Source: Xanthomonas hortorum pv. pelargonii (lineage in GTDB: Bacteria; Pseudomonadota; Gammaproteobacteria; Xanthomonadales; Xanthomonadaceae). From it: DNA of 64,000 nucleotides. The translations under genes were made by a program, and so were the position numbers. The stretch lies in contig NZ_CP098604.1 of NCBI RefSeq assembly GCF_024499015.1, forward strand, positions 3,348,001 through 3,412,000. Direction: 5' to 3'. This document shows, one piece after another, positions 14,669-25,022 of this stretch (the first letter of the stretch is position 1; each line of letters begins with the position of its first letter). The notes below the pieces were generated by a model. It had not been told where the DNA came from. It was given only the letters and a program-made list of their open reading frames with translations, and searched no databases.

Positions 14669-15355
14669 TCAGCGACGATATCCGACCCCGTACTGAAAGA
14701 ACGTGGGTGTCTGGCTCACCACTACGTCCAGCCCTGCAGCGCTGCACGCGGCCTGCAATTCGCTGGTCGCGTAGTAGTTCTTGACGATCGTGCTGACGTT
14801 GCCATTGCGCAGGCGGCGCTGCATCAACTGGCCTTCCACGCCCACGACGTGCGGCGACAGCGCCTCGGGTTTGGGGAGATTGTCGATAAAGAAGAACTTC
14901 CCGCCCACATCCAACGCATCTGCTACCTTGCGCAGGAACTGCGGCAACAACTCGCGTGGTACGTGCGAGACCCAGAACGCGAATACCACTGCATCGTAGG
15001 TCCGCGTGGCTTGCCATTGGAAGAGATCTGCCTGCACCGTACGCACCCGCGGGTCACAGGTTGCCGGATTGAACTTCAGCATCTGCGCCGATCCATCGAC
15101 CAGGGTCAGTGAGCGTGCTTTTGGCAGCAACTGGACGCTCCAGATGCCGGTACCGGCCGCCAGCTCCAGGATGTCGCCCTCCAGCGCAGCGGTATCCAGT
15201 GCGTCCTGCACGCGTGCGGCCTCCTCGCGCCACCTGACATTAGACGCATCACCCTCATCGAAGGATCCGCGACGGAACCACCAGTCGTCGTATTCCGCTG
15301 CGCGGTCGTCGTAGTAACGTTGTTGTTCGATTAGTACCGATTGCCATTGCGTCAT
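14669..15355 (-). CDS. Class I SAM-dependent methyltransferase
   Basis: 228 aa. I chose the ATG at 15355 because AGGA stands nine bases upstream; the open frame extends further but without protein-like sequence. The Rossmann SAM-binding motif I is LELAAGTGIWS, followed by the acidic LVDGS loop and an AFWVSH-type motif IV. It is the last gene of the minus-strand phosphonate operon. A likely job is O- or N-methylation of the product, either tailoring or self-protection; the target is not predictable. It ends 70 bases from the convergent TonB receptor. Confidence 0.85.
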   Translation of the reverse strand: MTQWQSVLIEQQRYYDDRAAEYDDWWFRRGSFDEGDASNVRWREEAARVQDALDTAALEGDILELAAGTGIWSVQLLPKARSLTLVDGSAQMLKFNPATCDPRVRTVQADLFQWQATRTYDAVVFAFWVSHVPRELLPQFLRKVADALDVGGKFFFIDNLPKPEALSPHVVGVEGQLMQRRLRNGNVSTIVKNYYATSELQAACSAAGLDVVVSQTPTFFQYGVGYRR

Positions 15356-15414
15356 GATGTGTTCCTGGTCGTGGGATGTGGCAATGGAAGGCAGCAGCGT
15401 GTGGCCTGATGCCG

Positions 15415-22846: not shown

Positions 22847-24060
22847 AACGCCGCCGACCTCTCGGTTGTGTTGGCGCGTGCAGCGGCAGGGTGGGCGACC
22901 GCGTCGGATGTGGAGATCCTCCGCTGCTGTAGATGCGCCGCAAATCGTCTGCCGACTTCGCTGGGCGAAACGGTTGGGCGCGGTAGCGGATGCATGGAAC
23001 CAGGTCGTATACGCAAATGGATGAAGTGCGGTCCGGCACTGTGTAAAGCGATATCCAGTGCTTGTTTCAGCGCGGCATCCCCGTAGCAGGCGTAGGTGGC
23101 CCGGTAGCCGCAGGCTGCAGCCACGCTTGGGAAATCGATGTTTCCCGAATTGGTTGGCTGACCTCCCGTACTGTCATGCACGCCATTGTCCAGCAGCACA
23201 TGAATGAAACTGGCCGGTTGATAGCGGCCGATGGTGGAGAGGTTGCCGAGCTTCATCAGCGCAGCGCCATCGCCATCGAGCACTATCACGGGATGATCAG
23301 TGTTGAGCGCAGCCCCCAGACCTAGCGCACTGGCGCATCCCATGGATCCCACCAGGTAGAGATTGCGCGCATCGTCGCGGACGCAGAATAGTTCCCGCCC
23401 GGTCTTGCCCGTGGTTGCGATGATGGCGGAGTTATGCGGTGTCATGGAGACCACCGTGCGCAGCGCGTCTTCCCTGCTTGGTAGCGGCAGTTCGGATGTT
23501 CCGAACTGCGATCGCGTCGCTGCCGGTACTCGGATCACCGCTTGCGCCAGCAGATGCTCGTCTTCGAGTACGTTGGGTTCCACGACCAGCGCGTAAGGCA
23601 AACGCGTCTGCTGGATGCAGGCATGGGCAGCCCGTAGCGTGGACTCGATCTGATCCGGTTCGGATGGGAAGCGTGCGTGCGGAATACGCAACACATCGAG
23701 CAGACTCTGGGTGATCTCGCCCATCACAGCATGCTGAGGCTCGTCTGCGACACCGGGGGAGCCTCGCCAGCTGCAGATCAGCAGACAGGGAATCTGAAAT
23801 ACGTGGTTGAGCGAGGTCAATGGATTGACAGCGTTGCCCAAGCCCGAGTTCTGTAACATCACCACTGGCAGGCGCCCCGCAAGATAGGCGCCTGCCGCGA
23901 TGCCAATGGCTTCGCCCTCGCTGGCTGCGGTGACATGATGCACATGTGGGTCGCCGAGGACTCCATTGAGCAGGGATGTCAGATAGGAGCAGGGCACGCT
24001 TGTGTAGAAATCGAACCCCAGCCGCGACGCGGTCGCGACAAATTCCTTGCCGTTGATCAT
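22843..24060 (-). CDS. Phosphonopyruvate decarboxylase
   Basis: 405 aa thiamine-diphosphate enzyme converting phosphonopyruvate to phosphonoacetaldehyde and CO2, the irreversible step that pulls phosphonate synthesis forward. The N-terminal pyrimidine-binding domain opens GFDFYTSVPCSYL and has the TPP-activating Glu in ASEGEAIG. The C-terminal domain carries the TPP-binding motif GDGAALMKLGNLSTIG, and HDSTGGQPT is typical of this enzyme. It overlaps pepM and the oxygenase gene by 4 bases each. The C-terminal 35 residues are low-complexity (Ala/Arg/Thr). Confidence 0.93.
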   Translation of the reverse strand: MINGKEFVATASRLGFDFYTSVPCSYLTSLLNGVLGDPHVHHVTAASEGEAIGIAAGAYLAGRLPVVMLQNSGLGNAVNPLTSLNHVFQIPCLLICSWRGSPGVADEPQHAVMGEITQSLLDVLRIPHARFPSEPDQIESTLRAAHACIQQTRLPYALVVEPNVLEDEHLLAQAVIRVPAATRSQFGTSELPLPSREDALRTVVSMTPHNSAIIATTGKTGRELFCVRDDARNLYLVGSMGCASALGLGAALNTDHPVIVLDGDGAALMKLGNLSTIGRYQPASFIHVLLDNGVHDSTGGQPTNSGNIDFPSVAAACGYRATYACYGDAALKQALDIALHSAGPHFIHLRIRPGSMHPLPRPTVSPSEVGRRFAAHLQQRRISTSDAVAHPAAARANTTERSAAL

Positions 24061-25022
24061 CGTGCAGCCTCTGCGCCGTAGCTGTTGCTGGCCAGCGCGG
24101 CCACTTTCTCCTTCTTGGGGAGATAGATGCTTTCGGCCTGCGTCAGTTCGTCCTGATCGACCAGGTCGAATATTTCCTTTACCCGTGGCAGTTCCTTCTC
24201 GATGCCGCTTAGCGAACGCTCCCGGTGAATGGTCGCGCAGATCCTGCGCATGCTGGCCACGGACGCGCGCAGGTTATGGTTGGCCCAGATGATGCTGGCG
24301 ATCTTTGCATCGATGAACGCTTGAGTCGGCACCGCGTAATACGTGGTCGGCACGATCACCAAGGGACAGCGGTCTTGCCAGTGCTCGGCAAATTTCAGGA
24401 TCTCCGCACCGTCGCTTTTCTTCGAGTGGATCAGGATCGCATCGGCTCCGGCGGCGTGGTATTGCTCGGCCCTGCTCAAGGCCTCGGTGAGCCCACGCCC
24501 GGCGATCAGTGCCTCCACCCGCGCCACAACGCAGAATGCGTCGTTGCTCTGGCTATCCTTGGCAGCCTTGATCTTGCCTGCGAACTCGGAAGGGTCCGCC
24601 AGCTCCTGATCCTCGCCGATGAAGGAGTTGGTCTTGGGGAACATCTTGTCTTCGAGGCAGACTCCGGCAACGTTGCGTTGGCAGAGTTTTTGGACAAGCC
24701 TGCGCACGCTGTTGAAGTTGCCGTAGCCGGTATCTCCATCCAGCAGGATCGGCAGATCGGTGCTGTCGGTCATGAACTCGACCACTTCCAATGTCTGTGT
24801 CCAGGAGGCTTCGTTGGCGTCGCGCACACCCAAGGAGGCTGAGATGGACAGGCCCGATGCCCATATCCCCTCGAAGCCTGCTTCGGCAACGATGCGCGCA
24901 GATAAGCCGTTATGCGCTTCCATCAGGAACGAAGTGCTCTGTCCGGTGAGCAGACCGCGCAGCTTCGAAGCCAGGTATGCGTCACGATGACGCCCATCGA
25001 TTTTTTGAGTTGAGGTGTTCAA
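24057..25022 (-). CDS. pepM: Phosphoenolpyruvate mutase
   Basis: 321 aa. It interconverts PEP and phosphonopyruvate, the entry step of nearly all C-P bond biosynthesis. The diagnostic motif EDKMFPKTNSF is present; it separates true PEP mutases from isocitrate lyase relatives. The Mg-binding LDGDTGYGNF is also present. The start is a TTG at 25022, with GGAG eight bases upstream and no suitable ATG. It is the first gene of the nine-gene minus-strand operon and is preceded by 1.2 kb of AT-rich gene-free DNA, suggesting acquisition by transfer. Confidence 0.95.
   Translation of the reverse strand: MNTSTQKIDGRHRDAYLASKLRGLLTGQSTSFLMEAHNGLSARIVAEAGFEGIWASGLSISASLGVRDANEASWTQTLEVVEFMTDSTDLPILLDGDTGYGNFNSVRRLVQKLCQRNVAGVCLEDKMFPKTNSFIGEDQELADPSEFAGKIKAAKDSQSNDAFCVVARVEALIAGRGLTEALSRAEQYHAAGADAILIHSKKSDGAEILKFAEHWQDRCPLVIVPTTYYAVPTQAFIDAKIASIIWANHNLRASVASMRRICATIHRERSLSGIEKELPRVKEIFDLVDQDELTQAESIYLPKKEKVAALASNSYGAEAAR

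What the first reader, a model, noticed from the sequence alone, without database searches (positions are those of the whole stretch)
14669..25022. Nine-gene phosphonate biosynthesis operon with an unfamiliar tailoring set
The sequence shows nine minus-strand genes, five junctions overlapping or within 10 bases, the largest gap 76 bases. PEP mutase (EDKMFPKTNSF), phosphonopyruvate decarboxylase and a PhnY-like dehydrogenase predict the route PEP to phosphonopyruvate to phosphonoacetaldehyde to phosphonoacetate (established enzymology). A cytidylyltransferase-like protein, an AsnB-like amidotransferase, an AurF-type oxygenase, a Fic-like protein, a methyltransferase and a TauE exporter would build and export a product (inference). 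There is no transaminase, so aminoethylphosphonate is not the expected end product. A small secreted phosphonate (toxin, signal or amide conjugate) is plausible; I cannot match the combination to a known pathway.
Basis: partly seen in the sequence, partly recalled or inferred. Interest (0 to 1): 0.92.

Follow-up and report, generated by a model that had tools for sequence, protein, structure and literature searches.

The report
Phosphonate operon predicted to make hydroxamate
Some plant-associated bacteria carry a compact nine-gene unit that looks built to turn a central metabolite into a small, masked phosphonate, possibly a natural version of a compound known so far as a laboratory inhibitor of the sugar-burning enzyme enolase.

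Summary
The operon is real. Nine minus-strand genes (14669-25022) encode PEP mutase, phosphonopyruvate decarboxylase, an AurF-type oxygenase, a LicC/PntC-like cytidylyltransferase, an AsnB-like amidotransferase, phosphonoacetaldehyde dehydrogenase, a TauE transporter, a Fic-fold protein and a methyltransferase. The same order recurs, as far as contigs reach, in five other Xanthomonas records and, at 39-86% protein identity, in two Paracidovorax species with different neighbours. In Xanthomonas it fills a site that is empty in 20 of 29 genomes lacking PepM. Two guesses can be sharpened. The methyltransferase is closest to DhpI, a phosphonate O-methyltransferase. The Fic-like protein is closest in fold to AnkX, which uses CDP-choline, so cytidylyltransferase and Fic protein plausibly make and use a CMP-phosphonate. 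AurF plus AsnB is a known hydroxamate-making pair. With phosphonoacetate as its acid, the predicted product is phosphonoacetohydroxamate or a masked form. The route to phosphonoacetate is well supported; hydroxamate, order of steps and Fic role are inference. No description of this cluster appeared in the paper listings seen.

The parts
24057..25022 (-). pepM, phosphoenolpyruvate mutase (321 aa, TTG start)
   Evidence: TIGR02320 377 bits over cut-off 319.6; EDKMFPKTNSF motif
22843..24060 (-). ppd, phosphonopyruvate decarboxylase (405 aa)
   Evidence: TIGR03297 434 bits over cut-off 312.5
21893..22846 (-). AurF-type diiron N-oxygenase (317 aa); inferred to N-hydroxylate an amide
   Evidence: PF11583 80 bits over cut-off 29.6; six of seven putative iron ligands invariant in 20 aligned rows, the seventh (E111) is D in one; 34% to SaAmOx over 243 residues
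21171..21896 (-). LicC/PntC-like cytidylyltransferase (241 aa); inferred to make a CMP-phosphonate
   Evidence: best PDB matches PntC-type 6pd1 (E 2.8e-12) and LicC 1jyk (1.8e-11), both over nearly the full length
19142..21160 (-). AsnB-like glutamine amidotransferase/ATP-dependent amide synthetase (672 aa)
   Evidence: Asn_synthase and GATase_7; TIGR01536 439 bits over cut-off 267; 30% to SaHAT hydroxyamidotransferase over 634 columns
17671..19125 (-). PhnY-like phosphonoacetaldehyde dehydrogenase (start uncertain: 19125 or 19236)
   Evidence: TIGR03250 748.5 bits over cut-off; best PDB 4i3t, E 2.7e-158
16835..17674 (-). TauE/SafE-family transporter, inferred exporter
   Evidence: PF01925 131.9 bits
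15415..16758 (-). Fic-fold protein (447 aa); residues 196-447 AnkX-like, residues 1-95 type III chaperone-like (weak); the N-terminal stretch of relatives lies in another frame upstream here
14669..15355 (-). DhpI-like SAM-dependent (phosphonate O-) methyltransferase (228 aa)
12118..14598 (+). TonB-dependent receptor: flank of the insertion site, not part of the unit
   Evidence: next to the regulator in genomes without the operon
26223..28196 (-). sigma-54-dependent-type regulator: other flank of the insertion site, not shown to control the operon

Best explanation
A self-contained phosphonate biosynthesis operon. PEP mutase and phosphonopyruvate decarboxylase make phosphonoacetaldehyde and the PhnY-like enzyme oxidises it to phosphonoacetate (well supported by family membership, not assayed). 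The AsnB-like enzyme then amidates the carboxyl group and the AurF-type enzyme N-hydroxylates the amide, or AurF hydroxylates glutamine and AsnB transfers the hydroxylamine; either way the product core is phosphonoacetohydroxamate (inference). The cytidylyltransferase links CMP to the phosphonate, as a mask and activating group; the Fic-fold protein, built like the CDP-choline-using AnkX, takes the phosphonyl group off CMP and gives it to an acceptor (a hydroxyl of a small molecule or protein, or water). The DhpI-like enzyme methylates a phosphonate oxygen, hiding its charge, and TauE exports the product. Masking would spare the producer's single enolase. Order of the last steps is not determined.
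Against: AurF of this operon forms its own deep clade (branch 1.02 changes per column, quick tree), not nested with MatA-like or SaAmOx-like proteins, so its substrate is not settled by descent. AsnB passes the generic asparagine synthase model (439 over 267 bits) and scores best, below cut-off, with the exopolysaccharide-type TIGR03108 (464 vs 817); it is only about 30% identical to SaHAT. No TsnB6-like helper. None of the 25 shown of 32 NCBIfam matches of the cytidylyltransferase reaches its cut-off. The Fic protein is below the Pfam Fic cut-off and far below the NCBIfam AnkX cut-off (22 vs 1400 bits); its motif lacks both glycines and the last arginine; model pLDDT is 70; fic is broken in one carrier. 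A single enolase and no resistance gene are equally what one expects if enolase is not the target. The confidence given is for the core claim (a phosphonoacetohydroxamate-type small product); the Fic role alone is about 0.45.
Confidence: 0.5

Rival explanations
1. Macromolecule tagging: the operon makes a CMP-phosphonate that the Fic-fold protein uses to attach the phosphonate to a protein (own or foreign) or surface component; no free small molecule is secreted.
For: Most bacterial phosphonate capacity is said to serve cell surfaces, with LicC-like nucleotidyl activation (PMC6697681, abstract and one section). AnkX-like fold. Fic is the fastest-evolving gene of the nine: dN/dS 0.23 to X. maliensis and 0.46 to P. 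konjaci, the highest of nine in both.
Against: No LicD-type or glycosyltransferase domain found in the nine proteins; a TauE transporter and a DhpI-like methyltransferase point to a small exported molecule.
Confidence: 0.2
2. Small phosphonate with another nitrogen function: AsnB makes phosphonoacetamide or joins another amine, and AurF oxidises it to something else (nitro, nitroso, nitrile-type group), or AurF acts on a different amine brought in.
For: AurF itself is an arylamine N-oxygenase (solved relatives 3chh, 2jcd); the clade is distant from characterised amide hydroxylases.
Against: No aromatic or amine-supplying gene among the nine; AurF + AsnB pairs occur in hydroxamate pathways and near each other more often than random placement gives.
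Confidence: 0.2
3. Phosphonate use as a phosphorus source, with PhnY-like and TauE genes as catabolic parts.
For: PhnY-type dehydrogenase is known from catabolic pathways (established knowledge; 4i3t relative).
Against: pepM and ppd lead the operon; no PhnA match at E 1e-5 in the genome, and PhnW and PhnX matches only far below cut-off.
Confidence: 0.03

Closest known systems
Dehydrophos pathway (DhpI phosphonate O-methyltransferase)
   Different: No peptide-forming genes (dehydrophos gene content recalled); oxidation goes to phosphonoacetate; AurF, AsnB, cytidylyltransferase and Fic are added
Trichostatin/benzohydroxamate (TsnB7/TsnB9, SaAmOx/SaHAT) and actinonin/matlystatin (ActI/ActJ, MatA/MatC) hydroxamate modules
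   Same: AurF-like oxygenase with AsnB-like enzyme acting on a carboxylic acid
   Different: The acid here would be a phosphonate; a cytidylyltransferase gene lies between the two; no TsnB6-like helper, as reported for act/mat
Nucleotidyl-activated phosphonates (PntC, Fom1; CMP-AEP, CMP-HEP)
   Same: LicC-like cytidylyltransferase three genes from pepM; such proximity is common (PMC6697681)
   Different: No transaminase or LicD partner in the operon; an AnkX-like Fic protein instead
AnkX phosphocholine transferase (Fic fold, cytidine donor)
   Different: No evidence here that it is an injected effector; altered Fic motif; different N-terminal region; the 10 relatives listed are from Xanthomonas, Paracidovorax or unnamed records
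O-phosphonoacetic acid serine and Kitasatospora phosphonoacetate-type clusters
   Same: PepM, Ppd and PhnY-type dehydrogenase to phosphonoacetate (PMC12723261 passages)
   Different: Different tailoring; the term AurF does not occur in that paper's main text
SF2312 and synthetic phosphonoacetohydroxamate (enolase inhibitors)
   Same: Predicted product shares the phosphonate-hydroxamate core (PMC12288639 passages)
   Different: SF2312 is a cyclic actinomycete product; no gene cluster for it was seen in the 15 of 998 papers listed; one search found 0 papers naming phosphonoacetohydroxamate with gene cluster and biosynthesis

Membership tests
PepM-type phosphonate biosynthesis cluster | PEP mutase with EDKxxxxxNS motif plus an exergonic next step (Ppd) | tested here: met
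   TIGR02320 and TIGR03297 over cut-off; motif
PhnY phosphonoacetaldehyde dehydrogenase | Passes the equivalog model; catalytic Cys and Arg/His residues line up with PhnY | tested here: met
   TIGR03250 748.5 over 635.7; alignment to 4i3t keeps NSGQRC, NHPLN, EVGRA and the Arg of the EVPG(Y/F)R stretch; the role of these residues, and that 4i3t is PhnY, is recalled
AurF diiron N-oxygenase | Pfam cut-off and seven iron ligands | tested here: met
   80 bits over 29.6; E76, E111, H114, E169, H196, E200, H203: six invariant in 20 rows, E111 is D in 1 of 20; ligand identity recalled from AurF; the six from E111 on fall in the stretch aligned, E76 does not
AurF + AsnB hydroxamate module | Hydroxamate formed from a carboxylic acid | not testable with these tools
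   gene pair present; 34% and 30% identity to SaAmOx and SaHAT
TsnB6/7/9 cassette | TsnB6-like helper subunit | tested here: not met
   tblastn of SaAmOx-AS against the window, L008-L014, L069, L080 and L015-L067: best E 2.6
DhpI phosphonate O-methyltransferase | Closest solved relative is DhpI by sequence and fold | tested here: met
   32% identity in the structural alignment
DhpI phosphonate O-methyltransferase | Methylates a phosphonate oxygen | not testable with these tools
   needs an assay
LicC/PntC cytidylyltransferase | Full-length similarity to LicC/PntC | tested here: met
   6pd1 and 1jyk best; no NCBIfam cut-off reached in the 25 of 32 matches shown
LicC/PntC cytidylyltransferase | Uses CTP and a phosphonate | not testable with these tools
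   needs an assay; some database names of close relatives are phosphocholine or L-glutamine-phosphate cytidylyltransferase, names only
Fic/Doc (Pfam PF02661) | Curated score cut-off | tested here: not met
   19.5 vs 24 bits
Fic/Doc (Pfam PF02661) | Motif HxFx(D/E)GN(G/K)RxxR | tested here: not met
   H, F, D/E, N, R kept in 8 of 8 rows; both G positions and the last R changed; motif recalled
AnkX | NCBIfam equivalog cut-off | tested here: not met
   22.3 vs 1400 bits; so it is not filed as an AnkX
AnkX-like Fic fold | Fold match clearly above other Fic proteins | tested here: met
   [not shown]

The most novel reading that the evidence does not exclude
A natural phosphonoacetohydroxamate pathway in plant-associated proteobacteria in which a Fic-fold enzyme, not a LicD-type one, transfers the CMP-activated phosphonate to an acceptor: a phosphonate counterpart of AnkX phosphocholination and a new chemistry for the Fic fold.
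Probability: 0.25. Interest if true: 0.92.

Novelty: new variant of a known kind. Interest (0 to 1): 0.74.

Why it matters
If right, nature makes the open-chain phosphonate hydroxamate that chemists built as an enolase inhibitor, in bacteria that live on plants. It would give a defined gene set for a possibly enolase-directed natural product, make the question of how producers survive such a compound testable (masking by CMP or methyl rather than a spare enolase), and add phosphonyl transfer to what Fic folds do. The operon is small and shared by two bacterial families, so each step can be tested with single purified enzymes.

Tried and rejected
Spare enolase as self-resistance: one enolase gene in each of 34 of 35 genomes, none found in the 81%-complete one. 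Phosphonate catabolism: no PhnA match; PhnW and PhnX far below cut-off. Type III regulon: the PIP-box pattern (recalled) occurs twice in the window (43428, 63614), not near the operon, no more than chance (mean 1.55). Promoter scan upstream (24900-26300): one promoter-like site, on the other strand; shuffles gave 1.7. The AurF tree did not place this clade with a characterised one (quick method, long branches warned of). Methyltransferase as a TsnB8 relative: no (21.6 bits). Other pepM + AurF neighbours: L063 (AsnB, AurF, an HTH protein, pepM, ppd, Fe-ADH, 2-hydroxyacid dehydrogenase) and L041 (pepM, zinc dehydrogenase, TauD, carbamoyltransferase) have different sets. Fic relatives: 10 proteins (only the 8000 candidates sharing most words were scored); weak C-terminal matches in 4 of 368 other genomes of the class, not followed. 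In one search lower rows include AvrB, Bartonella and other Fic proteins: the fold is shared widely, and no function was read from them. Relatives of P0053 in plasmids and viral contigs gave nothing of use. Paper searches: 8 listed of 8; 0; 4 of 4; 20 of 26 listed; 0; 15 of 23 listed; judged from titles and beginnings of abstracts, in an open-licence library. Papers: PMC6697681 (abstract and one section), PMC13418202 (part 1 of 4 and passages), PMC5719088, PMC11160463, PMC12288639, PMC12723261, PMC13302981, PMC7858074, PMC6278250 (passages), PMC12871164 (abstract and outline); PMC4313731 not held.
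Full report
Observation. pepM, ppd and the PhnY-like dehydrogenase pass curated models; AurF, NTP_transf_3, Asn_synthase, TauE and methyltransferase cut-offs are passed. The Fic call is weak by sequence (19.5 bits against a cut-off of 24). The fic start is uncertain: the first 26 or so residues of relatives lie in another frame upstream of the GTG at 16758.

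Distribution. PepM occurs in 6 of 35 genomes of the genus searched, the window's own included. Among 74 loci found with an AurF profile, seven (L008-L014) carry this operon. In five of the seven (L008, L010, L011, L013, L014) matches to all nine genes lie in the same order; L009 and L012 end at contig ends after six and four genes in the same order. They are X. hortorum jj2001, X. dyei, X. axonopodis, X. maliensis, X. vasicola, Paracidovorax anthurii and P. konjaci. Single proteins from X. hyacinthi and P. avenae were also listed. Two copies are damaged: in jj2001 pepM and ppd are interrupted, in X. axonopodis DSM 3585 fic is not one open frame.

Boundaries. In the window the operon lies between a TonB-dependent receptor and a sigma-54-type regulator. 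Reading together: of the 29 genomes without PepM, 20 have matches to both flanking genes on one contig 82-939 bases apart, 3 have them on different contigs and 6 lack both at the threshold used (E 1e-150). In the window's genome the two are 11.6 kb apart and in G021 (jj2001) 14.0 kb. DNA matches to the window's flanks were found beside the operon on at least one side in each of the five other Xanthomonas records, on both sides at length only in L008 and short or partial in L010-L012. In X. vasicola (G033) neither flanking gene, and in X. axonopodis (G008) no receptor and only a damaged regulator, reached the threshold. In P. konjaci the nine genes have other neighbours on both sides; for P. 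anthurii only the right side could be seen, and these neighbours were named by reading, not by a search. So nine genes appear to be the unit that is kept together. Identity between window and P. konjaci runs from 41% (fic) to 82% (pepM); dN/dS against X. maliensis is 0.05-0.23. The dS values against P. konjaci are above 1.1 and rough.

Route to phosphonoacetate. Family membership of PepM, Ppd and the PhnY-like enzyme gives PEP to phosphonopyruvate to phosphonoacetaldehyde to phosphonoacetate (established enzymology; not assayed). No PhnA and only sub-cut-off PhnW/PhnX matches are in the genome, which speaks against breakdown and against aminoethylphosphonate.

Hydroxamate module. The AurF-type protein keeps the iron-ligand residues (ligands recalled from AurF, and the alignment agrees for the stretch it covers). 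AurF-like and AsnB-like pairs make hydroxamates: TsnB7/TsnB9 and SaAmOx/SaHAT through glutamyl hydroxamate, ActI/ActJ and MatA/MatC in the authors' view more likely through the amide. The S. angustmyceticus genes were fetched: AurF 34% over 243 residues, AsnB 30% over 634 columns. A matlystatin-type locus in Actinomadura atramentaria (L080; mutase, glyoxalase-type, acyl-CoA dehydrogenase and carrier-protein neighbours; the identification is mine) has an AsnB 32% identical over 668 columns. Outside this operon, 37 of 67 AurF loci hold an AsnB and 32 of 67 have it within 3 kb; random placement of those 37 gave a mean of 14.5 and a maximum of 24 in 2000 trials. That test ignores that both gene types are common in biosynthetic clusters. 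No TsnB6-like helper is in the operon, so the amide-first route is the nearer model. Against this: the AurF clade stands alone on a long branch, AsnB identity is low, and AsnB also passes the generic asparagine synthase model.

Predicted product. Phosphonoacetohydroxamate or a masked form. The free compound is described as a potent synthetic enolase inhibitor and SF2312 as a natural cyclic relative (PMC12288639). One enolase gene was found in each of 34 of 35 genomes, so self-protection, if needed, would rest on masking and export. Nothing here shows enolase is the target.

Verdict. Real, conserved, and not described in the paper listings seen. It is a new variant of a known kind: a phosphonate cluster with a new tailoring set. 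Confidence: phosphonoacetate about 0.9, hydroxamate about 0.5, CMP-phosphonate as an intermediate about 0.6, Fic protein acting on it about 0.45 (my estimates).

Noticed in passing
[not shown]
   Followed up: no
L008:5481-9650: In X. hortorum jj2001 pepM and ppd are interrupted, and the pieces differ in identity to the window (78-100%), as if a stretch of another allele had come in.
   Followed up: no
L010:9301-10900: fic of X. axonopodis DSM 3585 is split over frames while the other eight genes have open frames over their matches.
   Followed up: partly
operon carriers: Most named carriers (X. vasicola, axonopodis, maliensis, hyacinthi; P. avenae, konjaci, anthurii) are, as recalled, from monocot plants; X. 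dyei and X. hortorum are not. Small sample, not tested.
   Followed up: no
P0053: An Agrobacterium vitis protein is 54% identical to the cytidylyltransferase, though no A. vitis AurF or Fic relative was listed; its neighbourhood could not be seen.
   Followed up: partly
NZ_CP122323.1:16928-17770: A Pantoea agglomerans plasmid encodes a hypothetical protein with a weak match (24%) to the Fic part.
   Followed up: no
window 36312-43183: A VirD4-type coupling protein gene, an unassigned gene and a zeta-toxin/peptidoglycan-binding protein gene in a stretch with G+C 0.53-0.63 by 2-kb window; looks like part of a type IV secretion locus.
   Followed up: partly
L063:7761-17118: Streptomyces sp. ISL-10 has AsnB, AurF, pepM and ppd close together with a different set: another possible N-oxygenated phosphonate.
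   Followed up: partly
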